Source: Flavitalea plasmicola (GTDB taxonomy: Bacteria > Bacteroidota > Bacteroidia > Chitinophagales > Chitinophagaceae). Taken from it: a stretch of 64,000 nucleotides of DNA. A model generated the notes under the pieces. The model searched no databases. It saw only the letters and a program-made list of their open reading frames with translations, and was not told the origin of the DNA. Location: assembly GCF_030546645.1 (NCBI RefSeq), contig NZ_JAUOTO010000001.1:1054001-1118000 (forward strand), given 5' to 3'. Positions 10,184 through 54,105 of this stretch are shown piece by piece. Within the stretch, counting starts at the first letter, position 1. Each line of letters starts with the position of its first letter. The translations under genes were made by a program, and so were the position numbers.

Positions 10184-10266
10184 AGCTACAAGCTACTAGC
10201 TGCAAGCTGCAAGTGATAAGATTTAATAAGACTTGCTTGTAGCTTGAAGCTTGCCGCTCACAGCTA
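10184..10266. repeat. 7-base-period AGCT repeat element, copy A
   Basis: The left arm runs as AGCTACA, AGCTACT, AGCTGCA, AGCTGCA, AGTGATA; then a core with AATAAGACTTGCT; then a right arm with the complementary period (GCTTGTA, GCTTGAA, GCTTGCC, GCTCACA, GCT). It fills the space between two convergent genes: it begins six bases after the E1 stop and its last bases reach the DCC stop codon. The arms can pair into a long hairpin. Confidence 0.85.
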
Positions 10267-10677
10267 TTCGAGGAACCTCGACTTCCACTCAGGCGAAGGC
10301 AGCCAGCAGCTGTCGTTCTTGCCGAACCAACGGTAGCGCCGTCGCGCTATCCAATTATAGACAGCATCTCTTAGTGGCCGGGGAATGATCCGGAAGAAAG
10401 ACAAAAGGGGCCATGCGCCATCCAGTTTCCGGCAAACGCGCAGCGCGCCCGCAGAACGGGTGTATACCTTATTGTTTTCCACCAGCACGAAAGAATCCAG
10501 CTGATCTGCCGGCAATCCGGAATGTCTCAGCAGGGATTGTCCTACTTCGCTTTGCAGGGACGCAAAGCGGAAAATGCCCCTCCGGTCTCTTTTTAAAATG
10601 AATTGAACGCTGCTGCTACAAAGATGGCAGACACCGTCGAATAAAATGATAGGAGAGGCGCCTGGCGTATGGGTTAT
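10264..10677 (-). CDS. DCC family (YuxK, DUF393) thiol-disulphide oxidoreductase-like protein, apparent ATA start
   Basis: The frame encodes 137 residues: [19 protein letters not shown], then [24 protein letters not shown], and a C-terminal [27 protein letters not shown] is the family's DxxCxxC motif, so the domain is complete. No ATG, GTG or TTG exists in frame before the motif; the first ATG (10515) would delete it. The family N-terminus would be MTHTPGA at 10677, but the codon there is ATA. That base lies in the overlap with yebC, which reads ATAA where ATGA is the usual stop-start overlap. Either translation starts at ATA, or the copy is a start-codon mutant, or there is a base error. The family's role is poorly defined. 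Confidence 0.7.
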
Positions 10678-11396
10678 TTTAGATTGTAAAAGACTTTCTG
10701 GACGTCCTCATCCTGTTCCAGCTTGTCTACCAGCTTCAGCACGTCCTGTGCCTGGTCGTCCGGCAGCTCGACGGTAGTGCCGGGGATCCATTCGATCTCG
10801 GCGCTGATGGGAGTGATGCCTTTTTCTTCAAGGGCCTTCTGCATGCTGCCGAATTCACTGAAAGGAGCGCGGAGCACCAGCACCGGCACGTCATTTTCGC
10901 CCACGCCTTCGCCCATTTCCTCCAGGCCGTGGTCGATCAGCTCCAGTTCCAGGTCGTCTGCGTTCAGGCCTTCGGGCTTTAGTTTAAAAACACCCATTTT
11001 CTTGAACTGGAAGCTTACACTACCGCTGTTGCCCAGGGTGCCGCCGCCTTTGTTGAAATGAGATTTTACGTTGGCCACTGTCCGGACATGGTTGTCGGTA
11101 GCGGTTTCCACCAGTATGGCGACGCCATGGGGACCGTAGCCTTCATAGAGGATCTCTTCATAGTTCTCCATCTCTTTACCCTGCGCCCGTTTGATAGCGG
11201 CCTCCACCCTGTCTTTGGGCATGTTGACGCTCTTGGCGTTCTGAAAGCAACGACGGAGGGCGGGGTTGGTGGCGGGATCGGGGCCCCCGGCCTTTACGGC
11301 TATGGCTATTTCTTTACCGATGCGGGTGAATTGCTTGGCCATCCGGTCCCAGCGGGCGAACATGGCATGCTTACGTACTTCGAATATGCGACCCAT
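10674..11396 (-). CDS. yebC: YebC/PmpR-family protein
   Basis: A 240-residue cytoplasmic protein with typical features: [20 protein letters not shown] at the N-terminus (TACO1-type proteins have SKWANIKHRK here), [19 protein letters not shown], the IKRAQGKE segment, [19 protein letters not shown] and [20 protein letters not shown]. YebC proteins were annotated as transcription regulators, and later work links the family to relief of ribosome stalling on proline-rich stretches. Its stop overlaps the presumed start of the DCC gene. A good -7 box lies 27 bases upstream, with a long inverted repeat further up. Confidence 0.92.
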
Positions 11397-11423
11397 AAGA
11401 ACTATTTATGCTTGATTGGGGTG

Positions 11424-11431
11424 CAAATTTA
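11424..11431 (-). promoter_or_regulatory. -7 promoter element of yebC
   Basis: The minus strand reads TAAATTTG, a perfect TAnnTTTG, giving a leader of roughly 20-25 bases before yebC. The -33 region falls in one arm of the inverted repeat at 11440-11483 and has no clear TTTG. Confidence 0.5.
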
Positions 11432-11439
11432 TGACAATG

Positions 11440-11483
11440 TCCGGAAAATGGGCCTTTTAAAAATATAGCCCATTTTCCGGAAA
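11440..11483. repeat. 14-base perfect inverted repeat upstream of yebC
   Basis: TCCGGAAAATGGGC at 11440-11453 is exactly complementary to GCCCATTTTCCGGA at 11468-11481, with an AT-rich 14-base loop. On the plus strand it is followed by A-rich sequence, so it is a weak terminator there. It overlaps the -33 position of the yebC promoter and may be an operator, or a terminator for transcripts coming from the permease gene. A second hairpin, AACGAACC-TTT-GGTTCGTT, lies at 11507-11525. Confidence 0.6.
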
Positions 11484-11533
11484 AATCTAATATCTGTCCT
11501 TCGGAGAACGAACCTTTGGTTCGTTATTGAAAA

Positions 11534-11567
11534 GAGGGCAGCCCGGAAGAAAAAATGGGCTGCCCTC
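11534..11567 (-). terminator. Terminator of the amino-acid permease gene
   Basis: GAGGGCAGCCC and GGGCTGCCCTC form an 11-pair GC-rich stem with TTTT on the minus-strand 3' side, 19 bases after the permease stop. Confidence 0.85.
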
Positions 11568-11585
11568 ACATAAATTAAGCTTTTA

Positions 11586-13070
11586 TCAGGCTTTCAGCTT
11601 GCTATTGTTCTTGCTGTAGCTAAAATATACCACCAGCCCTATGATCATCCAGAAAAAGGCGGTCAGCAGGGTGGTGGAATCCAGGGAAACGATCATGGCA
11701 GTACAGACCAGCATCCCTAATATGGGTACCAATGGCACCAGGGGAGTCTTAAAAGGACGGGCCCGGCCCGGGTCATTTTTCCGCAGGATCATTACACCCA
11801 CACAAACCAGCACAAAAGCAAAGAGGGTCCCGATGCTTGTCAGATCCCCGGCAACACTACCCGGGACGAATGCCGCAAACAGGCCTACAAATACGAACAG
11901 GATGAGATTAGACTTGTACGGTGTGCGGAACTTCGGGTGAAGCGCACAGAATACCTTCGGCAGCAGGCCATCAGTAGCCATGGTATAAAATACACGGCTT
12001 TGGCCCAGGAGCATTACCAGGATGACCGAGGAAAAACCTGCCAGGATACCGATGGTTACCAGGGAGGCCAACCAGCCATAGCCATGCATGTAGGTATCGA
12101 TGGCATAAGCCACAGACGCTTCCTTACCTGCTTTTACGAAATCCGTATAAGGCGCTACGCCGGTAAGCACGTAGGAAAAGAGGATATACAGGACGGTGCA
12201 GATGACCAGCGACCCCAGGATGCCGATGGGCATGTCCTTACTGGGGTTCTTGGCTTCCTGGGCTGCCGTGGAGACCGCATCAAAACCGATGAAAGCAAAA
12301 AATACGATAGCCGCCCCGGTCAATACGCCTCCCCAGCCATGTCGGAAGAAGCCCGTATAACTATAGAAGGTGCCATCCCGGAGCTGCGCGGGCGGGGCAT
12401 CTGCGGGTATCAGGTAGGGATGGTGATTGGAGGGGTTGATGAACTGCCAGCCTACAGCGATGAATACCAGAACAATAGCTACTTTAACGAACACGATGAT
12501 CGCGTTGACGGTGGCAGATTCCTGGGTACCTTTTATCAATAGAAGGGACAGGAGCAAAAGGATGAGAAGAGCGGGCGCATTGATGATCCCATGATGCATG
12601 ACACCGCTGGCGTCCAGGGCCCGTTCGAAAGGCGAATGAGACCACTCAAAAGGGATGGCTCCTCCTACCAGCTTGTTCAGGAACTCGCTCCAGGCAATGG
12701 AAACAGTGGCAGCTCCCAGGGCATATTCGAGGATCAGGGCCCAGCCTATGATCCAGGCTATCAGCTCTCCCATCGTAGCATAAGCATAAGTATAGGCGCT
12801 GCCTGCAATGGGGATCATGGAAGCAAACTCTGCATAGCAAAGTCCGGCAAAAGCGCAACCGATGGCGGCGACGATGAAGGAAATGGTGACGGCAGAGCCC
12901 GCATGTTCGCCCGCCGCCGCCGCGGTCCTTACAAACAGACCGGCGCCGATAATGGCGCCGATTCCCAGGGCGATCAGGCTTCCCGCCCCCAAGGTTCGTT
13001 TAAGTCCCTTTTCGGAGTCTCCCGCCTGGGACATGAGGACATCTAAAGACTTCTTTCGAAATAAACTCAT
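11586..13070 (-). CDS. APC-superfamily amino-acid permease (cationic amino-acid transporter type)
   Basis: A 494-residue inner-membrane protein with about 12-14 helices. It opens with MSLFRKKSLDVLMSQAGDS and then the hallmark first-helix motif GAGSLIALGIGAIIGAGLFV, where the unwound GIGAIIGAG binds the substrate backbone. Later comes FFAFIGFDAVSTAAQEAKNP, characteristic of the CAT/YfnA group. It should move amino acids by proton symport or exchange. I start at 13070 since the longer frame (13124) adds a polar N-terminus not typical of the family. It is transcribed alone, with its own terminator. Confidence 0.9.
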   Translation of the reverse strand: MSLFRKKSLDVLMSQAGDSEKGLKRTLGAGSLIALGIGAIIGAGLFVRTAAAAGEHAGSAVTISFIVAAIGCAFAGLCYAEFASMIPIAGSAYTYAYATMGELIAWIIGWALILEYALGAATVSIAWSEFLNKLVGGAIPFEWSHSPFERALDASGVMHHGIINAPALLILLLLSLLLIKGTQESATVNAIIVFVKVAIVLVFIAVGWQFINPSNHHPYLIPADAPPAQLRDGTFYSYTGFFRHGWGGVLTGAAIVFFAFIGFDAVSTAAQEAKNPSKDMPIGILGSLVICTVLYILFSYVLTGVAPYTDFVKAGKEASVAYAIDTYMHGYGWLASLVTIGILAGFSSVILVMLLGQSRVFYTMATDGLLPKVFCALHPKFRTPYKSNLILFVFVGLFAAFVPGSVAGDLTSIGTLFAFVLVCVGVMILRKNDPGRARPFKTPLVPLVPILGMLVCTAMIVSLDSTTLLTAFFWMIIGLVVYFSYSKNNSKLKA

Positions 13071-13279
13071 ATTAAAGCTGTTTTGATCAGTTAAGCGGAC
13101 CTGCGGCCCGCATGGGGTGAACAATAAGGTGAATCATGTATGTGTGACAATTCAGGGTCGTAAAATAAACAAATATTTAATAATGAGGCTCCAATTCTTA
13201 CCAGCGGGTCGTTTTTATGGATTAAAGTTTTGCCAAGTCAGGATTTTTCGATTTTTTGCACCTTAAAGAAAGGCCAACT

Positions 13280-14527
13280 ATGCGGAAGATCAGTCTTACG
13301 AGCTGGATTATGATTGCGATGGTGCTGGGGGTGGTCGTGGGACTCTGGGTACATTACACCGGATCTGCACAAACGATCGATAGTTTTTCCGGAGGTATTT
13401 CGGTTTTAACTGATATATTCCTTCGCCTGATCAAAATGATCATTGCGCCGCTTGTATTTAGCACCTTGGTGGTGGGGATCGCTAAGCTGGGGGATGTGAA
13501 GTCGGTGGGACGCATCGGGGGAAAGACATTGCTGTGGTTCATGGGCGCATCGCTGATGTCCCTGTTGCTGGGTATGGTGATCATGAATAGCCTGGAATTA
13601 GGGAATGAGCTGGCGCTGCCTTTGCCGGCCGCCAATGCCGCAACGGGTATTGAGCAAACCTCCCTTTCCTTCAAAACTTTTATCACGCATGTTTTCCCCC
13701 GCAGCATCTTCGAGGCGATGGCGGGTAATGAGATATTGCAAATCGTTGTATTTGCCGTGTTCTTTGGGATCGCCACGGCAAGCATTGGCGAACAGGGCAA
13801 GATCGTCATCAAAGGACTGGATGCCGTGGCGCATGTGATCCTCCGGGTGACGGGATATGTCATGTACTTTGCACCCGTCGCTGCCATGGCGGCCATCGCT
13901 TCTGTCCTGGCGGTGAAGGGACCGGAACTGCTGGTGACCTATGGGAAATTTATCATCAGCTTCTACCTGAGCATTCTCGGGCTTTGGCTGATCCTCCTGC
14001 TGATAGCTTCCATCTTCGTTGGAAAGCGGGTGATCTACCTGGCCATTGCCGTAAAAGATATGATCCTGCTGGCTTTCAGCACGGCCAGCTCGGAGGCTGC
14101 TTTTCCCCGGCTGATCCAGGAACTGGAGGCATTCGGGTGTCCTCCAAAGATCGTCAGCTTTGTCCTGCCCCTGGGATATTCCTTCAATCTGGACGGGAGC
14201 ATGCTGTATATGACGTTTGCTTCTCTTTTCATTGCACAGGCCTATGGCATTCCTTTGACCATCGGGCAGGAGATCTCGATGCTGCTGGTGCTAATGCTCA
14301 CCAGTAAGGGGATCGCGGGTGTTCCGAGGGCGTCCCTGGTGGTGATCGCGGGAACCTTGTCATTATATAATATTCCGCAGCAGGGATTGTTGTTACTTTT
14401 GGGGATCGACCAGATCTTGGACATGGCGCGGAGCGCAACAAATGTTTTGGGAAACAGCATTGCAGCAGTGGTGGTGAGCAAGTGGGAAGGTGAACTGGGA
14501 GAAACCGCTGTGAATACCTATAAATAG
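13280..14527 (+). CDS. Dicarboxylate/amino-acid:cation symporter (DAACS)
   Basis: A 415-residue membrane protein of the glutamate/C4-dicarboxylate symporter family. Features are the N-terminal MRKISLTSWIMIAMVLGVVVG helix, IKMIIAPLVFSTLVVGIAKL, hairpin loop 1 with STASSEAAFPRLIQELE, the NMDG-like motif as SFNLDGSMLY, and the DQILDMARSATNVLGNSIA ion-binding helix. Transport is coupled to Na+ or H+; the substrate is not decidable. The start at 13280 has AGAAAGG upstream; the frame also opens at 13256. It is the first gene of a tight rightward run (gaps of 23, 27 and 9 bases) through the GT9 gene, likely one operon. Confidence 0.9.
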   Translation: MRKISLTSWIMIAMVLGVVVGLWVHYTGSAQTIDSFSGGISVLTDIFLRLIKMIIAPLVFSTLVVGIAKLGDVKSVGRIGGKTLLWFMGASLMSLLLGMVIMNSLELGNELALPLPAANAATGIEQTSLSFKTFITHVFPRSIFEAMAGNEILQIVVFAVFFGIATASIGEQGKIVIKGLDAVAHVILRVTGYVMYFAPVAAMAAIASVLAVKGPELLVTYGKFIISFYLSILGLWLILLLIASIFVGKRVIYLAIAVKDMILLAFSTASSEAAFPRLIQELEAFGCPPKIVSFVLPLGYSFNLDGSMLYMTFASLFIAQAYGIPLTIGQEISMLLVLMLTSKGIAGVPRASLVVIAGTLSLYNIPQQGLLLLLGIDQILDMARSATNVLGNSIAAVVVSKWEGELGETAVNTYK

Positions 14528-14550
14528 CACCTTTAAATGGCACCTTTTTT

Positions 14551-15237: not shown

Positions 15238-15264
15238 ATATCCTTTTAAAAACGTATTGCTTAC

Positions 15265-16509: not shown

Positions 16510-16518
16510 ATTTGTGAA

Positions 16519-17505: not shown

Positions 17506-17538
17506 AAAACCCCCGGCGATCAGGTGATGCCAGGGGTT
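17503..17538 (-). terminator. Terminator between the GT9 gene and mdh
   Basis: AACCCCCGGC and GCCAGGGGTT pair with one mismatch around an 11-base loop. The minus-strand side ends in six T, so it mainly serves mdh; the plus-strand side is weaker. Confidence 0.7.
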
Positions 17539-17562
17539 GGTATTATATCTTCAGCCTGAAGG

Positions 17563-19260: not shown

Positions 19261-19264
19261 TTAT

Positions 19265-22567: not shown

Positions 22568-23903
<1,336 letters not shown>

Positions 23904-23905
<2 letters not shown>

Positions 23906-23987
23906 CTATGAGCGAGAAGCCGCGAGCTGCGAGTCAGGGACTAATAAGACCTGCTCATAGCTCGAAGCTGGTAGCTCGCAGCTTATT
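23904..23987. repeat. 7-base-period AGCT repeat element, copy B
   Basis: Left arm units AGCTATG, AGCGAGA, AGCCGCG, AGCTGCG, AGTCAGG, then a core with TAATAAGACCTGCT, then right arm units GCTCATA, GCTCGAA, GCTGGTA, GCTCGCA, GCTTATT. The first unit begins inside the accC stop codon and the last covers the ispH stop codon, so the element exactly fills the gap between the two convergent genes. Confidence 0.85.
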
Positions 23988-25197
23988 TAAGAGTTTGGAG
24001 TTTGTCGGAGGCATTGTAGTACCCGGCCAGTTTGCTGATGACGGATTCTACCAGTGCGTCAGGGCAGGAAGCTCCGCTGCTGATGAGGATACGTGCGGGC
24101 TTTTGCTCAGGCAGCCAATCTTTCGTTGTTATTTCCTGCTTATTATGAAAGTTGTAGTGTAAGATCTCGGTAGGGGACAGGATCTTTTCTTCCGAGCTGA
24201 TGAAGTAGGTCGGCAGTTTCTCTTCACATAGCTCCACCAGGTGTGAAGTATTGGAGGAATTATATCCGCCCACGACGATGGCGAGGTCGGCAGGGGTATC
24301 CAACAGGCCAATGACGGCGGACTGGTTGTCCAGGGTGGCATAACAAAGGGTGTCGCGGGTGTCGGCGAAACGTTCCCCGATGGTGCTTTCGTCCAGCCCG
24401 TGGGTGTCCATCATCGTCGCCTTCAGATAATCCGCAATGGCCTGCGTATCGCTGGCCAGCATGGTGGTCTGATTGACCACGCCAATGCGGCGGAGGTCTT
24501 TCTCCACGGCAAACCCTTCGCTGTATTGTCCTTTGAAAGCGTGATAGAACTCACTGGCTGGCCTTGACCCCCTGATATATTCCGCCAGTACTTTTGTTTC
24601 CTCCATGTCTTTCACCACCACGGTAGGCGTGTCTGCCGCAGCGTGGGAAAAGGTGGCTCTTGTCTCTTCATGTCCCGGTTTGCCATGGACGATGATCGTA
24701 TAGTCTTTTTTCGCAATCTGAGAAGACCTGTTCCAGACTTTTTCCACGAAAGGGCAGGTAGTGTTGTATTGTTCCGTATGAATGCCGATGGAATGCAGCT
24801 TGTTTTCGATCTCCAGGGTAGTGCCGAAGGCGGGGATAATTACAATATCATCTGCATTCAGCTCCTCGAATGGAATGAGCTGTTTTCCGTAGGTGTCCTG
24901 CAGGAAGCGTACCCCACGGGATTGAAGGTCTGCATTTACCTGTGGGTTGTGGATCATTTCGCTGAGCAGGAAGATGCGACGGCCGGGGTTCTCTTCAATG
25001 GTCCGGAAAGATATTTCGATGGCGTTCTCTACCCCGTAGCAAAAGCCGAAATGGCGGGCCAGGTAAATATGCAAGTTGCCCAGCTCCAGCAGGGTGGGTG
25101 CAAAATCCTTCTTCATTTTATCCTGCTGTTTACGCCGCTGTTTTATGGCGCTGATCAGCGGGCTACGGTAGATGATGGGAACGTTGAAGGTTTTCAT
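23983..25197 (-). CDS. ispH: 4-hydroxy-3-methylbut-2-enyl diphosphate reductase
   Basis: A 404-residue enzyme of the long IspH subtype (about 400 residues, as in cyanobacteria and plants, against about 315 in E. coli). The three iron-sulphur cysteines are in RHFGFCYGVENAIE, NTTCPFVEKVW and ISSGASCPDALVE; the catalytic Glu region is VVNQTTMLASDTQ. It makes IPP and DMAPP in the last step of the MEP isoprenoid pathway. The N-terminal 35 residues are basic and not conserved, so the start could be at a later ATG (MKKDFAPTLLELG), but a promoter -7 box 13 bases before 25197 favours the long form. Confidence 0.92.
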   Translation of the reverse strand: MKTFNVPIIYRSPLISAIKQRRKQQDKMKKDFAPTLLELGNLHIYLARHFGFCYGVENAIEISFRTIEENPGRRIFLLSEMIHNPQVNADLQSRGVRFLQDTYGKQLIPFEELNADDIVIIPAFGTTLEIENKLHSIGIHTEQYNTTCPFVEKVWNRSSQIAKKDYTIIVHGKPGHEETRATFSHAAADTPTVVVKDMEETKVLAEYIRGSRPASEFYHAFKGQYSEGFAVEKDLRRIGVVNQTTMLASDTQAIADYLKATMMDTHGLDESTIGERFADTRDTLCYATLDNQSAVIGLLDTPADLAIVVGGYNSSNTSHLVELCEEKLPTYFISSEEKILSPTEILHYNFHNKQEITTKDWLPEQKPARILISSGASCPDALVESVISKLAGYYNASDKLQTLK

Positions 25198-28132: not shown

Positions 28133-28439
28133 AATTATTTATAAATTTTTTTCGTTTGAGACATTCATTTCCTCGATCGTATAGTATGACAGCAAAATAA
28201 CGCCAAGGTTTTAATTATGGTCTTACCAACGGTCCGGTTTAACAAAAAATTTACTAAGGTCTTCGTAGATCGCTAGGGCCGGGCCATTGTTATAAGCTCA
28301 GTTTCAGCGAAGAACGAAAAGTCCTCCTATAAATTTACAAAAGAAATGCCGGGTATGAAAGGATTTCTTACCCGCGAAAAAATAGCAGTCGGGCTGCCAT
28401 GTGTGCAGCTTGTCCGGAAAGAAAGGCAGGTCTTAAACA
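28133..28439. other. Intergenic region upstream of htrA, no gene seen
   Basis: About 300 AT-rich bases between htrA and repeat copy C. There is a weak inverted repeat GGGTA/TACCC near 28350-28375 and no reading frame of quality. The minus-strand frame of 60 codons here is translated repeat and leader sequence. Confidence 0.5.
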
Positions 28440-28576
28440 AGCTGTGAGCAGCGAGCTTTGAGCTGTGAGCCGGTCTTTTATAGGTCTTTGCTCGTAGCTC
28501 GTAGCTCATAGCTCATGGCTCGCAGCTGGTAACTCATGGCTCGCAGCTGGTAACTCATGGCTCGCAGCTGGTAACT
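28440..28576. repeat. 7-base-period AGCT repeat element, copy C, with a 21-base triplication
   Basis: The element has left units (AGCTGTG, AGCAGCG, AGCTTTG, AGCTGTG, AGCCGGT), a core whose complement reads AAGACCTATAAAAGACC, and a long right arm of about 13 units. Within it a 21-base block (three 7-base units, starting CTCATGGCTCG) is present three times in tandem at 28512-28532, 28533-28553 and 28554-28574. The right arm ends at the stop codon of the LuxC-like gene. Confidence 0.85.
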
Positions 28577-29574
28577 CAGAGTCCAGTGAGGAACTGCATG
28601 GTGTCCACCCCGTCAGCGTAGTCGGCGAGACCCGGTCGCTGTGCCATGCCAAAATGGGTTTGCCCCTGGGCTACCACGCATTGGATATCCGGGTTGCCCA
28701 GGAGGCGGGGGGTGGGATCTTCACCAGGCGCGTAATATTCATAGTTCAATACGCTGATGGCACTGAAGGGGGAGGGGGCTTCCACCAGCAGAATAGACTC
28801 ATTTGTCATGTAATATTTCTTATTCAGGAGAAGGATGGCGAGCTGATAGTCGTAATTATTCTTGTATTTGGCAAGGTCGGCGAGGTAGTTATACCTGCGA
28901 AACGCTTCCAGCAGGGATAGAAAATCATATTTTTCCGGTACGTACAGCTTGGTGACGTTGCGGCATCCCAGCCCGAAATACTGGTAGACGTCATCGGCCA
29001 GTCCGTCCAGGTCTTCGTAGGTTTCCAACCCGGTGAGCACCGCCACGGAGGTACGATTGCGGCGGATGATATGGGGGTATTTGGCGAAATAATAGTCAAA
29101 ATAGCGGGCTGAATTATTGCTGCCGGTGGCAATATAGGCGTAGCAGCCGTTGAGGCGCTCGGCAAAGCTGACCAGGGAAGGGATCTCAGGATCGTATGTC
29201 TCCAGTTGCTGGAGCAGATGCCTGAAAAGGACGTTGTCGCGGGAAGAAGGCTTGATCAGCTGCCGGTGACCCGTCATAAAAATGCTGAGAAAGTCATGAA
29301 ATCCTACCAGGGGGATGTTGCCGGCCATGGTTAGTCCGATGGTCTTGGGGGTAGGATTTTCCGTGGGAAGGTCATATTTGCGGGCCCATGCCGTCAGCTT
29401 GTCCTTTTGGAGAAATTCGTTTGCTATCTGCTTGATGGCCAGCTGAATGAATTCCGGGGTAAACCAGCCATTTTCGGCGTGGGCACGCTGCTGGGCGGCT
29501 AGCCATGCGGGATCTTCGGATATGCAATAATTCCCTAGCTTTGTCAATACATCGATCCGTTGTTCCAAGTTCAT
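28576..29574 (-). CDS. LuxC-like acyl-CoA reductase
   Basis: A 332-residue protein of the LuxC acyl-CoA reductase family within the aldehyde dehydrogenase superfamily. Landmarks: LTMAGNIPLVGFHDFLSIF (nucleotide-binding region), LIKPSSRDNVLFRHLL, ATGSNNSARYFDYYF, IRRNRTSVAVLTG and the catalytic-Cys region GLGCRNVTKLYVP. It would reduce a fatty acyl-CoA or thioester to the aldehyde. LuxC without the other lux genes is common in Bacteroidota and regularly sits divergent to a small ferredoxin gene, as here. The start at 29574 (MNLEQRIDVL) is chosen because a -7 box lies 30 bases upstream; the frame also opens at 29607. Confidence 0.85.
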   Translation of the reverse strand: MNLEQRIDVLTKLGNYCISEDPAWLAAQQRAHAENGWFTPEFIQLAIKQIANEFLQKDKLTAWARKYDLPTENPTPKTIGLTMAGNIPLVGFHDFLSIFMTGHRQLIKPSSRDNVLFRHLLQQLETYDPEIPSLVSFAERLNGCYAYIATGSNNSARYFDYYFAKYPHIIRRNRTSVAVLTGLETYEDLDGLADDVYQYFGLGCRNVTKLYVPEKYDFLSLLEAFRRYNYLADLAKYKNNYDYQLAILLLNKKYYMTNESILLVEAPSPFSAISVLNYEYYAPGEDPTPRLLGNPDIQCVVAQGQTHFGMAQRPGLADYADGVDTMQFLTGL

Positions 29575-32099: not shown

Positions 32100-32111
32100 G
32101 CCTGGGCCGTA

Positions 32112-32145
32112 AGCTACAAGCTACATGCTGCAAGCAGGAATGAGC
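32112..32145. repeat. 7-base-period AGCT repeat element, partial copy E
   Basis: One arm only: AGCTACA, AGCTACA, TGCTGCA, AGCAGGA, ATGAGCA, starting 12 bases after the PASTA gene stop. No core or second arm is seen. Confidence 0.65.
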
Positions 32146-37058: not shown

Positions 37059-37118
37059 ATTGATAATAAGTTCTTAAAAGAGGGGAATGCACGAAGGAGA
37101 AAAGTGAGTTGTATGGTT

Positions 37119-37206
37119 ACCTTCCCTGCGCAGGCATTACCCTGACCAGGTTCTACGGGTATCTTCTCAGCCACTCCGCCACCAGCGGAACAGCACCCCG
37201 AGGAAT
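37119..37206 (-). promoter_or_regulatory. TPP (thiamine pyrophosphate) riboswitch
   Basis: The minus strand carries the Thi-box consensus in order: TCGGGGTGC, a GC-rich variable P3 arm (TTCCGCTGGTGGCGGA), GGCTGAGA, ATACCC, GTAGAACCTGGTCAGGGTAA and TGCCTGCGCAGGGAA. TTCC at the 5' end pairs with GGAA at the 3' end to form P1. It ends about 60 bases before the receptor start, so TPP binding probably shuts the gene off by terminator or by hiding the ribosome site. Confidence 0.96.
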
Positions 37207-37336
37207 CTGAAAACGGATACAAAGATACTGGTAAATTTCGAGGATGGGTTTGTAACTTTTAGAAGGCCCCGGTCGTCCCAGGGAAGAGAATGCAACATTT
37301 ATTACAGGGGGCCGTCTTTAAAAAAAATTGCTAATT

Positions 37337-39681: not shown

Positions 39682-39753
<72 letters not shown>

Positions 39754-46281: not shown

Positions 46282-46307
46282 GAGCCCCGCACTATTGTGC
46301 GGGGCTC
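46282..46307 (-). terminator. Terminator of the Gly/Tyr-rich protein gene
   Basis: GAGCCCCGCAC-TATT-GTGCGGGGCTC, an 11-pair stem with TTTTTC on the minus-strand 3' side, just after the stop at 46315. Confidence 0.88.
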
Positions 46308-46314
46308 AGCCTGA

Positions 46315-47010: not shown

Positions 47011-47106
47011 AAAACTGCATTTAGTCCCTATTAGACCAGGCCTGGCCGGACGGGTTTAATAGACCATTGGTCATTAACAAATTGAATTTTTTAATAATTT
47101 ATTAGC

Positions 47107-49650
47107 CTATTTCAGCCAGGTCTCGAACAGGCGAAAGATCCTTTTGTATTCATCCGTCCAACTGCTGGGTTCTAAGAATCCATGGTCTTCCACAGGGTAG
47201 ACTGCCAGCTCCCAATTATCCTTATGCAGCTCGATCAGTCGCTGTGTCAGCCGTACAATGTCCTGAAAATGCACATTTTCGTCCACCATGCCGTGGCACA
47301 TCAGGAGATGGCCCTTCAGCCCGTCCGCAAAATAGAGGGGGGAGCTCCGATGGTAGGCCAGGCTGTCGGAAAAGGGTTCGTTCAGGATGTTAGCGGTATA
47401 GCCATGATTATAGTGGGCCCAGTCCGTTACGGACCGGAGTCCGGCGCCGGCTGTGAACACGTCCGGCTCCGTAAACAAAGCCATCAGGGTGATAAAGCCG
47501 CCATAAGAGCCGCCATAAATGCCGATGCGTTTAGGGTCGACGCCTTCACGCTCTACCAGGTATCTGACGCCATCCACCTGGTCGCTGAGATCTTTGCCGC
47601 CCATATGCCGGTAAATTCCTGTGCGCCAATCCCTGCCATAACCGGCGCTGCCCCTGTAATCGATGTCCAGGACGGTGTAGCCGTTGTCGGCGAGGAGGTT
47701 GTTGAACATATACTCCCGGAAATAGCTGCTCCACCATTTGTGGGCATTTTGAAGATAGCCGGCGCCATGGACGAAAATGACGGCGGGTCGGAGGGCTGGG
47801 AGCTGTGAGCTTTGAGCTGTGAGCTGCGAGCTGCGAGCTCCGGGCGAAGAGCTGTAAGCTGCGAGATGAGGGGAGTCGGGATGTGGGCGGTAGATCCTTG
47901 CATAGACGGTGGCGCCATCGCTGGCCTGGAAGGTGATGAGGTCGGGGTCGCGCCAGGGATAGGCCCTGAATGTGTCGCTCATGGCCAGATTCGTCACCTG
48001 GTGCGGCTGGCTGCCGGGCATATTGTCCTGGAGGTAGAGTTCCCAGGGTTTGTTGGTATAGGAATACAGGATGGCCAGCTGTTTTTCATCGGGTGACAGG
48101 GTGACCAGGTTGGCGCCCGTCAGGGTGGTGATGCGTTGCGCTTTCCCGCCTGTGACAGGCAGTTGGTAGAACTGTTGCTCACCGGGCCGGACCTCATTGG
48201 TCGAGATATAGAAGCGCTTTTTATCCTGGGATAAGGCTGCCTGCAGTATTTCGAAGCGGCCGCCGGTCAGGCGGGTCTTTGCGCCTGTGCTTACGTCAGC
48301 CTTATAAATATGGGAGTAGCCGGTGGCTTCACTCTGGAACCAGCAGGTGTTCTCATCTATCCATCCGAGATTCGGGCGACCGATGCCGGGGCCGCCGATC
48401 CAGGCTTCGTCCCTTTGCCTGTCGAGCGGGCTAAGTTTGCCGGTGGCTGCGTCCAGGATCATCAGCCAGCGATCCTTGTTGTCCTGGGAACGGATGTCCA
48501 CGACCGCGTGCATACCCTGTTCGGACCACCAGGGGCCGTTGATGGTGACGGGGCGGGATGCGGGGGAAGCTGCAAGCTGCAAGCTACCAGCTACAAGTGA
48601 AGGAGCAGGGAAAGATGCGAGCTTCGAGCTGCGAGCTCTGAGTTCGTGAGATGAGGAGGTGTCGGGATAGTCTTTTACATAATCGGGTTGATCGGCGATG
48701 CCGGGGAGCTGGTCTGTCGCGATGGTGAGGACGGTGTCTTTTTCCGCATCGAATACGTAGAAGGTGGATAGAGATGGTGCAACTCCTACCTTGGTTCTGC
48801 CGGGGATGTCCCGGGTAAAACCTGTTTCCGTGACATAACTGGGTACGATGGTCGTTTTGGCATCGGTGGGTCTTTTGGTCAGACGGTAGGTGATAAACCT
48901 GCCGGTGGGGCTGATGACGAGGTTTGTCAGTTCCTTGTCGTCGATGTAGATATTCTTAAGGGGCTTGGGTTCACGGGCCTTATTGATGGCGTCTGCGATA
49001 TCTTTTTTTCTCTTGCGGCTCTTCAGTATGTCGAATTGCTGCAGCTGGTCGTTCTGCAGCCATTTTTCCTGCCGGGAAAGGTTGTCTTTTTTCTCGTCGG
49101 GCGGAGCAGGAGTGTGTTGAAAATTGGTCAGCTGCTCCGTGGCGCCGGAGGCGATGTCCCACGAATACAGATTGCCACCGCGCGTATAGACGACACGGCT
49201 GTCATGGAAGGAAAAGAGCGGACTGCTTTCTTTGTCGGCTGTGCGGGTGATCCTTTTTTCTTGATGGGTCTTTAGCTCCGTATAAAAGATATCTCCTTCC
49301 CTGGCATAGGTGCACGCAGAGCGTGCAACATTATAGCTAAGGCTTTCCTTAGGGACTGCGGACTGCTGCAGGGCATAGGAAGCTTTTTGGGGATGAAGGT
49401 TCTCTTTTGTGATGTAATAAAGGGAGTCATCCAGCTGCCTGTCCGGGTTCCATTTGAAAAAAAGGTATTTCCCGTCGCCACTCCAATAGGGATCGGAAGG
49501 ACTGGTACCGATCCATTTCGGGTCCTGCATGATCTTTTCGACGGTGAGCTTCTCGTTGGGAGTCTGGCCGTGGCTTGCATTGGACAAAGACAATAACAGG
49601 AAGCCGAGGAAGCAGGCGGACACTTCCTTTTTGAGGGTGGAGGTTGGCAT
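47107..49650 (-). CDS. DPP-IV-like S9 peptidase carrying two in-frame repeat-derived linkers
   Basis: An 847-residue secreted peptidase: N-terminal signal (LLLSLSNASHG), a beta-propeller (about 45-570) and an alpha/beta hydrolase domain from about 620 with AVIFVHGAGYLQ, YGGSYGGFITLMAL (Ser), HGMVDENVHF (Asp) and EDHGFLEP (His). It should remove dipeptides or cleave oligopeptides outside the cytoplasm. Two stretches have no place in the fold: residues about 332-365 (SSSHELRARSSKLASF and after) and about 593-620 (GARSSQLTAQSSQLPAL). Both are translations of the 7-base AGCT repeat and sit exactly at a loop and at the propeller-hydrolase junction. The reading frame stays open through both. Confidence 0.9.
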   Translation of the reverse strand: MPTSTLKKEVSACFLGFLLLSLSNASHGQTPNEKLTVEKIMQDPKWIGTSPSDPYWSGDGKYLFFKWNPDRQLDDSLYYITKENLHPQKASYALQQSAVPKESLSYNVARSACTYAREGDIFYTELKTHQEKRITRTADKESSPLFSFHDSRVVYTRGGNLYSWDIASGATEQLTNFQHTPAPPDEKKDNLSRQEKWLQNDQLQQFDILKSRKRKKDIADAINKAREPKPLKNIYIDDKELTNLVISPTGRFITYRLTKRPTDAKTTIVPSYVTETGFTRDIPGRTKVGVAPSLSTFYVFDAEKDTVLTIATDQLPGIADQPDYVKDYPDTSSSHELRARSSKLASFPAPSLVAGSLQLAASPASRPVTINGPWWSEQGMHAVVDIRSQDNKDRWLMILDAATGKLSPLDRQRDEAWIGGPGIGRPNLGWIDENTCWFQSEATGYSHIYKADVSTGAKTRLTGGRFEILQAALSQDKKRFYISTNEVRPGEQQFYQLPVTGGKAQRITTLTGANLVTLSPDEKQLAILYSYTNKPWELYLQDNMPGSQPHQVTNLAMSDTFRAYPWRDPDLITFQASDGATVYARIYRPHPDSPHLAAYSSSPGARSSQLTAQSSQLPALRPAVIFVHGAGYLQNAHKWWSSYFREYMFNNLLADNGYTVLDIDYRGSAGYGRDWRTGIYRHMGGKDLSDQVDGVRYLVEREGVDPKRIGIYGGSYGGFITLMALFTEPDVFTAGAGLRSVTDWAHYNHGYTANILNEPFSDSLAYHRSSPLYFADGLKGHLLMCHGMVDENVHFQDIVRLTQRLIELHKDNWELAVYPVEDHGFLEPSSWTDEYKRIFRLFETWLK
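47801..47874. repeat. 7-base-period AGCT repeat inside the DPP-IV-like gene, copy F
   Basis: Ten consecutive 7-base units on the plus strand: AGCTGTG, AGCTTTG, AGCTGTG, AGCTGCG, AGCTGCG, AGCTCCG, GGCGAAG, AGCTGTA, AGCTGCG, AGATGAG. It encodes the linker before the hydrolase domain on the minus strand. Confidence 0.9.
48567..48657. repeat. 7-base-period AGCT repeat inside the DPP-IV-like gene, copy G
   Basis: Units AGCTGCA, AGCTGCA, AGCTACC, AGCTACA, AGTGAAG, a degenerate middle, then AGCTTCG, AGCTGCG, AGCTCTG, AGTTCGT. It encodes residues about 332-365 of the peptidase on the minus strand. Confidence 0.88.
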
Positions 49651-49668
49651 ACCTTGGCGTATAGATGT

Positions 49669-51045
49669 TTATAATAAAATTAAAAAAGCGACTGAGAAAT
49701 AAATGACAAGACCGGTGACGTCCACAAGCGTAGCAACGAAGGGAGCGGAAGATGTCGCGGGGTCAGCTCCAAACCTTTTCAGGACGATGGGCAGCATGCT
49801 GCCGGCAATCGTACCCCAGAGGACCACTCCTACCAGGGACAAGCCGATGGTACTGGCTATCAGCAAAGAGTTATTGCCATAAGTATGGAATATCTGGTTC
49901 CACAGCATCACGCGGGTAAAGCCGATGACGCCCAGGACGGTGCCCAGCAGCAGGCCGGAAATGACCTCTCTCTGTATGACCCGCCACCATTCGGCGATGG
50001 TGATCTCACCCAGGGCCATGGCCTGGATGATGAGAGTAGAAGCCTGGGAGCCGCTGTTGCCTCCGCTGGAGATGATCAGGGGAATAAAGAGGGCCAGGAC
50101 AGTGGCCTTTGCTATTTCATCCTCGAAGTAGCCCATGGCTGTGGCGGTCAGCATTTCGCTGAGGAAAAGAACTACCAGCCAAACAATCCGTTTTTTAAAC
50201 AGCTTCAGGAGGGGGATCTCCAGGTAGGGTTCGTCCAGCGCTTCGGTACCCCCTATTTTTTGGATATCTTCCGTAAATTCTTCCTGTGCCACCCATAGTA
50301 CGTCATCGATAGTGACGATACCCAGCAATATATTGTTGTTATCCAGGACGGGCAGCGCCACACGGTTGTTCATTTTAAAAGCTTCGCTTGCTTTTTCCTG
50401 GTCGTCGTCCACGTAGAGTGCTATATACCGATTGTCTATTACGTCCTCGATCTTTTTTTCCGGATTGGCCAGGATGATCTCCCGGATACGAATGTCATCG
50501 ATGAAGACGCCCTTATCGTCCACTACATAGATCACGTCGATGGTTTCGCTGTCCTTTCCTACCTCACGGATATGCTCGATGACCTCTTTTATGGTCCAGT
50601 CTTTTTCCACGGCTATATAGTCGGGGGTCATCAGCCTGCCCACGCTGCTTTCGGGATAGCCCAGCAGGGAGAGGGTGATCTTTCTTTCCTCCGGGTCCAG
50701 TGTCTTGATGAGCTCCTTCACTACCTCGCTGGGCAATTCCTCCAGGAAGGCAGTACGGTCATCCGCGGAAAGGTCATTCAGCAGCTCGGCCGTCTTGAAG
50801 GCGGGTAATTCCTGTATGATCCTTTTCTGGGTGGAGAAGTCCAGGATCTTGAAGGTACTGGCTGCCCGATGGGTGCTCATATTGCCGATGATCTGCACTT
50901 CATAATCGGGGAATTCATAGATCAGTTCGGCGACGTCACTGATATTCTGATTGTTTAGAAATTCCCTGATCAGCAATACGTCTTCCGACTGGATGATTTC
51001 CAGGAATTGCTCCTGCGGCGTAGCATTTTCTTGCTCTAAGGACAT
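49669..51045 (-). CDS. mgtE: MgtE-type magnesium transporter
   Basis: A 458-residue channel: the cytoplasmic N domain of helical repeats (about 15-130, with LLNDLSADDRTAFLEELPSE), two CBS domains (about 135-255, GRLMTPDYIAVEKDW and ALPVLDNNNILLGIVTIDDV), a plug helix, and five C-terminal membrane helices with IPLIISSGGNSGSQASTLII, the pore motif of MgtE. It moves Mg2+ inward and is gated by cytoplasmic Mg2+. The ATG at 51045 is five bases from a promoter -7 box, which argues against the longer frame from 51081 and for a leaderless mRNA. Confidence 0.94.
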   Translation of the reverse strand: MSLEQENATPQEQFLEIIQSEDVLLIREFLNNQNISDVAELIYEFPDYEVQIIGNMSTHRAASTFKILDFSTQKRIIQELPAFKTAELLNDLSADDRTAFLEELPSEVVKELIKTLDPEERKITLSLLGYPESSVGRLMTPDYIAVEKDWTIKEVIEHIREVGKDSETIDVIYVVDDKGVFIDDIRIREIILANPEKKIEDVIDNRYIALYVDDDQEKASEAFKMNNRVALPVLDNNNILLGIVTIDDVLWVAQEEFTEDIQKIGGTEALDEPYLEIPLLKLFKKRIVWLVVLFLSEMLTATAMGYFEDEIAKATVLALFIPLIISSGGNSGSQASTLIIQAMALGEITIAEWWRVIQREVISGLLLGTVLGVIGFTRVMLWNQIFHTYGNNSLLIASTIGLSLVGVVLWGTIAGSMLPIVLKRFGADPATSSAPFVATLVDVTGLVIYFSVAFLILL

Positions 51046-51050
51046 GGGTT

Positions 51051-51082
51051 CAAACCTACGTTCAAAAACCGAAATGGACAAA
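51051..51082 (-). promoter_or_regulatory. Promoter of mgtE, abutting the start codon
   Basis: On the minus strand TTTG (51082-51079) and TAGGTTTG (51058-51051) are 20 bases apart, a full match to the Bacteroidota consensus. The ATG follows five bases later, so transcription would start at about the A of ATG. Confidence 0.65.
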
Positions 51083-51239
51083 CAACTGTTGGTTGGCCAT
51101 GAAAAATGTTCAGGGATGGGGGGCGGCTAGCTTCATCTTCACCATTGGTAATGCCATTATGACCGAAGATGGAGGCACACCCAAAAAGTCAAATGAACAA
51201 AAAGCGGTAACTTGTCGCGCCTAAAACAGTCATTTACGG

Positions 51240-51626
51240 ATGATATTACCGTCGCTTGTTATAGCGCCCACTGGCGAGAAGGGCAGAGGGGTATTTACCA
51301 CTGAGGACATCGGGAAAGGGACTATTGTTGAGGTGTCCCCTGTCATTGTCATGAGCCGGGAAGATCGCATGCTGCTGGACCAGACCTTATTGCATGATTA
51401 TATATTTGAATGGGGCGTCGATCCAAAAGGGTGCTGCATGGCTTTGGGCTATATACCCATCTACAATCATTCATATCGCAGTAATTGCGAATATGAAATG
51501 GACTACGGATCGGCGTTGATATCCGTCAGGGCGGTACGTTTTATACAAGCCGGGGAGGAGCTGTCCATCAACTACAACGGGGATTGGAACAATGAAACCC
51601 CCGTTTGGTTTGACGTACGGCCGTAG
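51240..51626 (+). CDS. Small SET-domain protein
   Basis: A 128-residue protein that is one SET domain: GRGVFTTEDIGKGTIVEVSP at the start (SET-N), the pseudoknot motif as GYIPIYNHSYRSNCEYEM, and RAVRFIQAGEELSINYNGDW (SET-C). SET enzymes transfer a methyl group from S-adenosylmethionine to lysines; NHS and GEELxxxY are the cofactor and active-site residues. No pre- or post-SET cysteines are present. Small bacterial SET proteins of this kind exist, but their substrates are not known. The gene stands alone between mgtE (divergent) and the barrel gene (convergent, 26 bases). Confidence 0.88.
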   Translation: MILPSLVIAPTGEKGRGVFTTEDIGKGTIVEVSPVIVMSREDRMLLDQTLLHDYIFEWGVDPKGCCMALGYIPIYNHSYRSNCEYEMDYGSALISVRAVRFIQAGEELSINYNGDWNNETPVWFDVRP

Positions 51627-51652
51627 GCGGCGGGCGGGCTGCCTCTGCCGGA

Positions 51653-53332
51653 TCAACGCTTTCTTTTCCGGCTGAGGACCGGAGAATAGCGAAGACCGAC
51701 GTTAATACCCACGCTGCTCATCCTGACCCTTCCGAAGCCCAGATCGCTCAGGGGGAGCTTCATATACGGAGCCACCATGATGGAGAAGTCATTGCTAATG
51801 CCTGTCTCCACGCCCAGGGACAGGTTGGCGGAGGATAAGATACCTTGTTTGTTGGTATACTGAAACTCCCTGCACACCTCTCTTCCAAAGAAATCAAAAT
51901 AGTACTTGTTACGTTCGCTACCGAACAGGTAAGTAGAAACGCCGCCGCTGGCGAAGAAGACGGTGTTGCCTGTTACGCTGAAATCGTAACGGAGATTGAG
52001 AGGGATCTCCAGCATATTCATTTTGCCTTTTATAAAATCTACATCTTTAAGACCGACGGACCTGTAATAGTCAGGGGGTGCTTTGAAGTCTGTCGCCCTG
52101 GCGGTATAGTTCTTTCTGGAAAAAAGGAGGCCTGTTCCCAGGTGCCATCTGTCCAGGACCTGATAGTCAACGGTGACGCCGATGCTGCTACCGGGCTTAT
52201 CGCCTGCGAGGGCATTGACGGAGGCGAAATCGGGCGCCACCTGCAGGCCGAAGGTAATTGGCCGGCTGATCCGGAGAGAGGGGCCGTTTTTCTTACCCGG
52301 GTTGGTGGGCGTCTGGGCGGTGTATGCTCTCAGCGCGGAATCACTGATGGTAGGGCGGCTATGCGGGAACTGCGGACGCCGGATAAATGATCGGGAAAGG
52401 CCGGCAGGCGCTGACAGGCCGGATATATTATTGGATGCTGTGTTGCCGCTGGGCGTTGTGTTTCCGTCGGTCGTAGTTTTCGATATGTCTTTATTTGATT
52501 TGTCCATATTGTTTGACTGCCTGCCGTTGGCGCCGGGGTGGTCATGCGGATGGCGGCTACGGAAGCCGGTGGTGGCTGCAAGGTGGTTGCCGGCGGTGAT
52601 AGGAGATGCAACGGAAAGGCTGCCGGCGGAAGGGTCTTTGGAGAGACCTTTGGCTGCGCTTTCGGATTTTCCAGCGGCTCTGCCGGAAGTCCCCGGAGAT
52701 ATCCCGGAATGGCCGGATGGTGTCCGGGTGGACCCGGAGGAGGGGGCAAATGCATTGGATACACCGCCGGAAGCACCGGGTGTACTGACGGGGGTATTGG
52801 GTGCTCTGACGGAACCATTGGATGCGCTGCCCGGGGTATTAGCTATTTTGGCGGCGCCGGCCGGGACGTTACGGGATGCCCCGGACACGTCCGTAGGTGC
52901 GGGTTCCGCCGAAGCAAGGCTGGAATCGATGTTCTGACTTTGATCCTGGTGGTAAGGTGTGGAAGTAGATTTATCTCTATAATCAGGGTTTTGAGTGGAT
53001 GAATCGGAGGCCAGGGTCCCGGGCTGTTGCTGCGGGGCCTTGACGACTGTCAGGGGCGGACTGCCTGAGTTTTCGGCCTTCCGTCCTTTGGCTTGCTTTA
53101 CGAAATAGTAGGAGACCCCCACGATCAGAAGGATCACCGGGGCATATTGAAAGGGGAGACGCCGGAAGCCGCGCAAACCGCGGGAGATATCCGGGCCGGC
53201 CCTGCCCAATTCCTTGTCCAGGCGGACTTCCAGTCTTTCCCATGCCTGGGGACCCGTAAGGTCTCCAGGGTCATGCTGACTGGCAGCTTCCCGGCTAAGG
53301 CGGTCCAATTCATTATCGGATAGGTTCAACAT
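51653..53332 (-). CDS. Putative trans-envelope anti-sigma-like protein with outer-membrane beta-barrel
   Basis: A 559-residue protein with four parts. Residues 1-60 are cytoplasmic, beginning MLNLSDNELDRLSREAASQH with PQAWERLEVRLDK, as in proteins encoded next to ECF sigma factors. One membrane helix follows (about 63-79, APVILLIVGVSYYFV). Residues about 85-354 are a Gly/Ser/Pro/Asn/Thr-rich, unstructured linker. Residues about 355-559 have the beta-strand pattern of an outer-membrane barrel (ITFGLQVAPDFASV to VGINVGLRYSPVLS). The start overlaps the sigma gene end by 20 bases, so they are translationally linked. Regulation of the sigma factor is inferred, not shown. Confidence 0.8.
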   Translation of the reverse strand: MLNLSDNELDRLSREAASQHDPGDLTGPQAWERLEVRLDKELGRAGPDISRGLRGFRRLPFQYAPVILLIVGVSYYFVKQAKGRKAENSGSPPLTVVKAPQQQPGTLASDSSTQNPDYRDKSTSTPYHQDQSQNIDSSLASAEPAPTDVSGASRNVPAGAAKIANTPGSASNGSVRAPNTPVSTPGASGGVSNAFAPSSGSTRTPSGHSGISPGTSGRAAGKSESAAKGLSKDPSAGSLSVASPITAGNHLAATTGFRSRHPHDHPGANGRQSNNMDKSNKDISKTTTDGNTTPSGNTASNNISGLSAPAGLSRSFIRRPQFPHSRPTISDSALRAYTAQTPTNPGKKNGPSLRISRPITFGLQVAPDFASVNALAGDKPGSSIGVTVDYQVLDRWHLGTGLLFSRKNYTARATDFKAPPDYYRSVGLKDVDFIKGKMNMLEIPLNLRYDFSVTGNTVFFASGGVSTYLFGSERNKYYFDFFGREVCREFQYTNKQGILSSANLSLGVETGISNDFSIMVAPYMKLPLSDLGFGRVRMSSVGINVGLRYSPVLSRKRKR

Positions 53333-53906
53333 ATGCTTTATGATCGGTTTTTTTTGTTAGGATCTTTCTTAGGTTCTCCCTTGCTTTGGAGAGATTGGAT
53401 TTGGAGGACCCGACGGAAATACCCAGCTGGCTGGCAATTTCTTCATGGGTCAGTCCTTCTATGACAAATAAGTTAAAAACGGTGCGGTAGGCTGGGGATA
53501 GCAGCCGGATGGCTTCGATGATCTCCTTGTACGACAATACGTCGAGGCCCGTTTCCTGTTTGTCTGCTATGTTCTCTGTGTCTTCGGACAGCATTTGTCC
53601 ATTGATGTAGGATGCGTTCTTCCGATAGTGGTCGATGCAGGTGTTGACAAGGATGCGCTTAAACCAGCCTTTAAGGGAGGCTGTGACATCGGTGTGTCGT
53701 GCTTCCTCGAATTGGCCGATGTTCCTGAACAGCTTGATAAAGCCTTCGTTCATGATCTCTTCTACTTGTTCAAGGTTGTTTTGGTAGCGATAGCATATTT
53801 TCATAGCATAGTCCTTGAGCATACTGTATAGCTCTTTCTGGCTAGCCCGGTCGTTGGCCCTGCAGCCTTCTATCAAAGCGAGTATTTGCGTGTTTGCCGC
53901 GATCAA
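53313..53906 (-). CDS. ECF-type RNA polymerase sigma factor
   Basis: A 197-residue sigma factor: region 2 with ELYSMLKDYAMKICYRYQNN, VEEIMNEGFIKLFRNIGQFE and LKGWFKRILVNTCIDHYRKN, and region 4 with LLSPAYRTVFNLFVIEGLTH, then EEIASQLGISVGSSKSNLSK. This is the typical Bacteroidota ECF layout. The frame has no ATG at the conserved N-terminus; TTG at 53906 (MIAANTQILAL) is the best start, and the next Met is already within region 2. The next gene, overlapping by 20 bases, is the proposed envelope-spanning partner. Confidence 0.9.
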   Translation of the reverse strand: MIAANTQILALIEGCRANDRASQKELYSMLKDYAMKICYRYQNNLEQVEEIMNEGFIKLFRNIGQFEEARHTDVTASLKGWFKRILVNTCIDHYRKNASYINGQMLSEDTENIADKQETGLDVLSYKEIIEAIRLLSPAYRTVFNLFVIEGLTHEEIASQLGISVGSSKSNLSKARENLRKILTKKTDHKAYVEPIR

Positions 53907-54023
53907 ATTATGTGTAGCGTTAAATGGTGAGCGCCGATATTGTTAAAACGCGCAAACTACTTTTAGCCATTAAGAAATTACGATAATGATATGTTAATGG
54001 TTGCTTGCCGGGTAGAATTTCCT

Positions 54024-54105
54024 GGCTACAAGCTGCAAGCCCCAAGCTTCAAGTTGAGGATAAATAGACGCTTGTAGCTTGCAGCCATCGGCTTGAGGCT
54101 GATTA
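54024..54105. repeat. 7-base-period AGCT repeat element, copy D
   Basis: Left units GGCTACA, AGCTGCA, AGCCCCA, AGCTTCA, AGTTGAG; core with GATAAATAGAC; right units GCTTGTA, GCTTGCA, GCCATCG, GCTTGAG, GCTGATT. The right arm runs into the stop codon of the DUF4403 gene. Confidence 0.8.

What the first reader, a model, noticed from the sequence alone, without database searches (positions are those of the whole stretch)
10184..54105. Dispersed 7-base-period repeat (AGCTNNN)n that repeatedly lies next to stop codons
Seen directly: five intergenic copies (10184-10266, 23904-23987, 28440-28576, 32112-32145, 54024-54105) share a 7-base unit with a palindromic AGCT. Four of them have two arms around a related core (AATAAGAC.TGCT-like). 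Both arms can pair into long hairpins. Copies A and B fill the space between convergent genes; B starts inside the accC stop codon and ends on the ispH stop. C and D end at the stop of the leftward gene, and E begins 12 bases after a stop. This looks like an element that spreads to, or is retained at, 3' gene ends, perhaps working as a bidirectional terminator or 3' mRNA stabiliser. I do not know of a named family for it.
Basis: partly seen in the sequence, partly recalled or inferred. Interest (0 to 1): 0.72.

Follow-up and report, generated by a model that had tools for sequence, protein, structure and literature searches.

The report
Heptad-armed hairpin repeats behind genes
This bacterium carries many short DNA hairpins built from a seven-letter unit, often sitting right behind the end of a gene, and the two arms of a hairpin are mismatched at one fixed position more often than chance explains.

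Summary
The repeats are real: AGCTNNNAGCTNNNAGCT with at most 1 mismatch occurs 1129 times in the 8.73 Mb genome against 5 for a control. The complete unit is an about 80-bp hairpin: four AGCTNYR heptads, an oriented core (AGGACTTAATAAG-like), four reverse-complement heptads; 39 clusters have L-R order, none R-L. In a 1.66 Mb sample 51 of 82 boundaries facing a gene's 3' end lie within 10 bp of its stop (random placement 7.7). None of 19 syntenic spacers of a relative shows one. A canonical terminator role is not supported: T-tracts near background, core orientation random to transcription, copies in operon-like gaps. One-armed arrays lie inside 25 called genes, two of them in one window gene. 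Unexpected: the hypervariable base of each heptad is complementary to its facing base in only 31 of 175 cases (0.328 expected; 0 of 2000 shuffles as low), in the facing register only. I infer that the hairpin forms in vivo and perfect pairing is disfavoured. Best reading: a species-specific REP/MITE-like hairpin family, tolerated behind stops, mobiliser unknown. Hairpin arrays of other 7/8-bp units occur in other Bacteroidota.

The parts
10177..10265 (.). Copy A: two-armed element (L arm, core with AATAAGAC, R arm) between the stop of 7715-10177 (+) and the stop of a leftward 83-aa ORF
23904..23983 (.). Copy B: two-armed element filling the space between the stops of accC (22568-23905) and ispH (23983-25197)
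23932..23952 (.). Core of copy B between its arms (AGTCAGGGACTAATAAGACCT)
28437..28583 (.). Copy C: CG/TG-type arms with core, right side extended, holding three 21-bp tandem units; overlaps the stop of the leftward gene 28576-29574
32105..32139 (+). Copy D: one-armed L array between two rightward genes
54024..54100 (.). Copy E: two-armed element next to the stop of the leftward gene 54103-55524; spacer 196 bp here, 120 bp in G018
47794..47870 (.). In-frame one-armed array inside the S9-peptidase-like gene 47107-49650 (-), residues about 593-619
48568..48640 (.). In-frame one-armed arrays inside the same gene, residues about 336-361

Best explanation
A species-specific, high-copy family of short non-autonomous DNA hairpins, REP/MITE-like in behaviour but with its own architecture. 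Shown: complete copies have four AGCTNYR heptads, an oriented core of about 20-25 nt and four reverse-complement heptads; spacers that hold them here lack them in a relative; their boundaries cluster at stop codons; core orientation is random to transcription; the variable base of each heptad is non-complementary to its facing base far more often than chance. Inferred: copies arise as DNA insertions, probably through a folded single strand; most in coding or 5' regions are lost and those directly behind a stop survive. The mismatch rule reflects either recognition of an imperfect hairpin by a mobilising enzyme or the loss of copies whose hairpin is too perfect. One-armed arrays are offshoots that change length by whole heptads; since 7 is not a multiple of 3, one strand of an array gives the same cyclic heptapeptide in each frame, so in-frame survivors inside genes are tolerated. 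Effects on transcription or translation would be secondary.
For: 1129 against 5 control matches; two-armed pattern 154 against 0; 39 L-R clusters, no R-L; oriented core; 51 of 82 boundaries within 10 bp of a stop against 7.7; none of 19 syntenic G018 spacers shows a copy; 193 of 195 family genomes have no two-armed match; orientation 9 against 9; facing position 5 complementary in 31 of 175, expected 0.328, 0 of 2000 shuffles as low, other offsets not below P 0.05; repeated in 25 copies outside the first 23, 17 of 92 against 0.337; same rule near and far from stops.
Against: No mobiliser found: the two Y1_Tnp genes have no heptad pairs within about 1.5 kb, and the 48 genes between close copies were judged only from their first residues. 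No target duplication or strain-level empty site could be read, because the relative is too distant; spacers often differ by replacement, not clean insertion. Position 5 shows no master base in any unit, unusual for copies of one source. In the 11 copies from newly fetched places alone the rule is not significant (10 of 43, P 0.09).
Confidence: 0.5

Rival explanations
1. A bidirectional terminator, mRNA 3' stabiliser or ribosome-stalling hairpin kept by selection on the neighbouring genes.
For: Strong hairpins (mean -39 kcal/mol as RNA, median z -4.0); 17 of 88 convergent spacers of at least 30 bp occupied against 6 of 182 divergent; few terminator-like sites beside copies in convergent spacers (2 of 17 against 30 of 64). 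E. coli REPs within 15 nt of a stop are reported to stall ribosomes (PMC12306157, passages).
Against: T-tracts near background; orientation random to transcription, no G-U preference in sense RNA (G-T 12, A-C 20); copies in gaps of 12-49 bases between neighbouring genes; G018 has only 7 bp between the accC and ispH stops; pairing rule unrelated to stops.
Confidence: 0.15
2. Hairpin arrays that grow in place by slippage and template switching, replacing neutral DNA until they meet a stop codon, without movement between sites.
For: Commonest junctions use A or AG of the first AGCT to end the stop codon; spacers partly replaced; three 21-bp tandem units in copy C; other genomes have arrays of other units also at gene ends.
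Against: Copies all over this genome share unit, arm length and oriented core, which needs dispersal; arm-templated copying should make facing bases agree, the opposite of what is seen.
Confidence: 0.2
3. A true REP family mobilised by one of the two Y1 (RAYT-like) transposases of this genome.
For: Two Y1_Tnp genes; REPs too lie mostly behind genes, between convergent and unidirectional ORFs, and sometimes inside genes (PMC3733652, passages).
Against: No heptad pairs around either gene; G018 and G004, without arrays in the stretches sampled, also have two each; the outer end of both arms is AGCT, no GTAG or CGTC tag.
Confidence: 0.1

Closest known systems
REP / BIME elements with RAYT transposases
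   Same: High-copy short hairpins, mostly behind genes and in convergent or tandem spacers, some inside genes (PMC3733652, passages)
   Different: About 80 bp with heptad arms; no GTAG/CGTC end tag; no Y1 gene with flanking copies; facing-base anti-pairing
MITEs
   Same: Short, non-autonomous, inverted-repeat, dispersed
   Different: No parent transposon and no target duplication seen; arms are short-period repeats
Rickettsia palindromic elements (RPE)
   Same: In-frame presence inside unrelated protein genes (PMC10969869, passages)
   Different: Here only one-armed arrays are genic (25 of 25), not the palindrome; unit is 7 bp
TAACTGA heptamer direct repeats of Beggiatoaceae, Cyanobacteria and some Bacteroidetes
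   Same: Seven-base tandem unit, mostly intergenic (PMC4679880, abstract and passages)
   Different: Those are one exact heptamer, direct, mostly just before start codons; here two facing arms, a core, a variable unit and gene ends
Rho-independent terminators
   Same: Hairpin behind stops
   Different: No clear T-tract enrichment; long loop; copies in operon-like gaps

Membership tests
REP/RAYT | GTAG or CGTC tag at one end of the palindrome | tested here: not met
   Outer units of both arms are AGCTNYR; flanks have no fixed tag
REP/RAYT | Copies flank a Y1 transposase gene | tested here: not met
   No AGCT pairs spaced 7 or 14 in the 3.2-3.3 kb around either gene
REP/RAYT | Location behind genes, convergent and tandem spacers | tested here: met
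MITE | Absent from the same spacer in relatives | tested here: met
   0 of 19 syntenic spacers in G018, by eye
MITE | Target-site duplication | tested here: inconclusive
   Flanks too diverged from G018
MITE | Ends shared with an autonomous transposon | not tested
   No genome-wide search for a parent transposon was run
Rho-independent terminator | T-tract after the stem | tested here: not met
   At least 5 T in 9: 10 of 76 against 11.9%; at least 6: 6 of 76 against 4.3%
Rickettsia palindromic element | Whole palindrome in frame inside genes | tested here: not met
   None of 25 genic arrays is two-armed
Rickettsia palindromic element | Sequence similarity to RPE families | not tested
   No RPE sequences compared
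TAACTGA heptamer repeats | Direct TAACTGA units close before start codons | tested here: not met
   Unit is AGCTNYR; 8 of 56 boundaries within 10 bp of a start, 51 of 82 within 10 bp of a stop
RNA families of Rfam 15 | Match at gathering score | tested here: not met
   Only two tRNAs and a TPP riboswitch in the window

The most novel reading that the evidence does not exclude
A general, unit-independent class of 7- or 8-bp-period hairpins in Bacteroidota, made by one process that writes short-period arrays with a conserved part and one free position, places them directly behind stop codons, keeps the free position unpaired, and now and then writes the same period in frame into proteins. The process could be a template-copying enzyme with one error-prone template position; no such enzyme was searched for here.
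Probability: 0.15. Interest if true: 0.85.

Novelty: new variant of a known kind. Interest (0 to 1): 0.6.

Why it matters
The facing-base rule gives statistical evidence, from one genome, that a dispersed hairpin forms in the cell in a given register and that perfect pairing is disfavoured. That makes the question of what copies, recognises or removes such hairpins testable. The in-frame arrays show how a repeat unit that reads alike in every frame can change the linkers of conserved proteins, and the other 7/8-bp hairpin arrays suggest that the kind is wider than one species.

Tried and rejected
Y1 transposase as nearby mobiliser: no flanking arrays, and array-poor G018 and G004 have the same number of genes. 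Compensatory pairing between arms: position 7 agrees between arms at every offset tested, so it marks subfamilies and not compensation. RNA wobble: no excess of G-T in sense orientation. A stop-related cause of the mismatch rule: 17 of 99 complementary near stops, 4 of 33 elsewhere. Back-up stop codons as purpose: the three commonest units (AGCTGCA, AGCTACA, AGCTTCA) hold no stop when read from the gene (reasoning). Autonomous copy between close elements: 48 genes listed, none recognised from its first 45 residues; no family search was run on them. The same AGCT element in array-containing relatives: a stricter two-armed pattern matched only G008 (4 matches) of ten genus members. Periodic mismatches in other families: mismatches concentrate in one phase (75 of 167 against 62.6), which is expected when both arms share a variable position, so I do not count it as the same rule. 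Papers: nine searches of the open-access library listed no paper that I recognised from title or abstract as describing this family; most subscription papers are not held there.
Full report
What is there. The window is part of an 8.73 Mb genome held as G000. The five reported copies are real, with the corrections given in the observation check, and two further arrays lie inside a gene.

Abundance. AGCTNNNAGCTNNNAGCT with at most one mismatch occurs at 1129 places (overlapping matches counted) against 5 for the reversed pattern. In the 32 other genus members the count is 0-21 in 27 and 60-123 in five (G008, G013, G014, G017, G020; controls 0-10). A two-armed pattern gives 154 against 0 (overlapping matches counted). 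Of 195 family genomes only the own one and one other, with 2 matches, have it (four of the 195 are of this genus).

Sample. I read 1.664 Mb of the own genome, window included. Heptad runs at score 20 or more: 160, against 15 and 16 in two second-order Markov copies; they form 107 clusters. I kept 94 with total score 30 or more and dropped 13. Genes were called by a simple hexamer script, so single gene limits may be wrong.

Anatomy. Left-arm units are AGCTNYR (L), right-arm units the complement (R). 39 clusters have L followed by R, none R followed by L. Over 919 units, read as L, positions 1-3 are A 92, G 98 and C 94%; position 4 is T 69%; position 5 is G 48, A 34, T 15, C 3%; positions 6 and 7 are mostly C/T and A/G. 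Typical copies have four units per arm; one arm runs on as AGCC(A/T)GG, the other as AGT, around a core like GGACTTAATAAGAC, and both orientations occur. With a strict rule 14 of 37 pairs could be oriented, with a looser one 25. No unit has a fixed base at position 5.

Location. The 94 clusters: 44 in tandem spacers, 19 convergent, 6 divergent, 25 inside called genes. Of 82 boundaries that face a gene's 3' end 51 lie within 10 bp of the stop; random placement in spacers of the same class gave 7.7 on average and 16 at most in 1000 runs. At starts it is 8 of 56. The commonest junctions use A or AG of the first AGCT as the end of the stop codon. Part of this is automatic, because an ORF that runs into an element may find its stop there. 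But against G018 I count by eye eight pairs in which the stop falls on the same codon as in the relative; elsewhere the ends differ by up to 11 residues.

Empty sites. G018 is the genus member with the highest DNA identity over accC (89%). A 400-kb stretch of it matches 193 adjacent gene pairs; 19 of these carry an element here and none of the 19 G018 spacers shows a heptad array (by eye). A de novo scan found no periodic hairpin in that stretch, although the whole G018 genome has 19 matches to the one-armed pattern against 3. For copy E the spacer is 196 against 120 bp, for a 77-bp copy. Other spacers range from shorter than in G018 to about 70 bp longer, so sequence was often replaced too. 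Five of 11 tandem pairs are 12-49 bases apart between matches in G018, which is operon-like.

Terminator reading. As RNA the elements fold strongly (mean -39 kcal/mol, median z -4.0). Flanks with at least 5 T in 9 nt are 10 of 76 against 11.9% background, with at least 6 T 6 of 76 against 4.3%. Core orientation is with transcription in 9 and against it in 9 tandem cases. Convergent spacers with a copy have a terminator-like site outside it in 2 of 17, without a copy in 30 of 64 (p 0.011); for tandem spacers of 100 bp or more it is 1 of 27 against 34 of 212 (p 0.14). As the copy fills most of such spacers, this does not tell replacement from lack of room. G018 has 7 bp between the accC and ispH stops, while G016 has a canonical hairpin there.

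The facing-base rule. If the hairpin forms, position 5 of a left unit faces position 5 of a right unit. In 23 canonical copies they are complementary in 13 of 92 cases, against 28.9 (across-element shuffle) and 28.2 (within-element shuffle), no shuffle of 4000 being as low. Anchored at the loop, 46 of 54 pairs had two or more units on both arms (8 dropped): 31 of 175, expected 0.328, 0 of 2000 shuffles as low; the six offsets of one to three units gave no P below 0.05, the lowest being 0.056. Within-element shuffling, which keeps base composition, gives 52.9 (0 of 4000 as low). In the 25 copies outside the first 23 it is 17 of 92, expected 0.337 (0 of 4000). In the 11 copies from newly fetched places alone it is 10 of 43 against 0.325, P 0.09, the same direction but not significant. 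Position 4 shows a weaker effect (96 of 175 against 0.603, P 0.007 across elements, 0.17 within). Identical facing heptads are 10 of 175 against 21.1, P 0.0015. The loop-anchored register was chosen after the outer-anchored result, and P values are not corrected for the positions tried. The fraction is alike near stops (17 of 99) and elsewhere (4 of 33) and in tandem, convergent and divergent spacers (13 of 81, 6 of 36, 2 of 15). I infer that the hairpin forms in the cell and that near-perfect copies are lost, or that an imperfect hairpin is what is recognised; the data do not separate these.

Inside genes. The 25 genic arrays are all one-armed; 15 read as L and 10 as R on the coding strand and give ELQAASxKLQATS-like or SSQLTAHSSQL-like peptides. 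Four genes with six arrays could be compared with G018: five arrays coincide with extra residues here; the sixth (first array of the rRNA-methyltransferase-like gene) faces a similar peptide in G018 and is probably no insertion. Two of the five lie in the window gene 47107-49650 (Pfam Peptidase_S9). The names of the other genes are my recognition of their sequences, not family searches. That one strand of a 7-bp array gives the same cyclic heptapeptide in each frame is arithmetic.

Wider class. A scan for short-period hairpins found 18 in 300 kb of G020, of many different 7- and 8-mers, 0 in the stretches of G018 and G004, and 0 in third-order Markov copies. In 875 kb of other loci it found 26, of which 21 have period 7 or 8, among them Niastella, Rufibacter, Flavobacterium and Mucilaginibacter. 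In G020 one is genic, three divergent, and the other 14 each have a stop within 12 bp; arrays that contain stops bias this. At the accC 3' end several relatives hold arrays of other units (by eye). A shared origin with the AGCT family is not shown.

Comparison. REP literature describes the same preference for spacers behind genes and intragenic units (PMC3733652, passages), and E. coli REPs within 15 nt of a stop are reported to stall ribosomes (PMC12306157, passages). RPEs are reported in frame inside genes (PMC10969869, passages). TAACTGA heptamers are the nearest seven-base case (PMC4679880, abstract and passages). This family fails a defining test of each (membership table).

Verdict. A real, abundant, lineage-specific family of dispersed hairpins, REP/MITE-like in behaviour; the anti-pairing rule is the unexpected part and the first thing to re-test.

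Noticed in passing
window 37106-37210 (-), 4763-4836 (-), 39682-39753 (+): A TPP riboswitch and two tRNA genes by Rfam.
   Followed up: no
window 10264-10515 (-): An 83-aa leftward ORF that may be a shortened gene; the corresponding gene pair in G018 is only 35 bases apart.
   Followed up: partly
L213-L227 (G020), one search places: One genome holds hairpin arrays of many different 7- and 8-base units, nearly each with its own unit in both arms.
   Followed up: partly
own genome C11:43557-43807 (script stretch A): Two complete copies share one convergent spacer, one next to each gene's stop.
   Followed up: no
own genome sample, stretches A-D: Copies are clustered (25 gaps under 2 kb against 9.6 expected) and long stretches have none.
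   Followed up: partly
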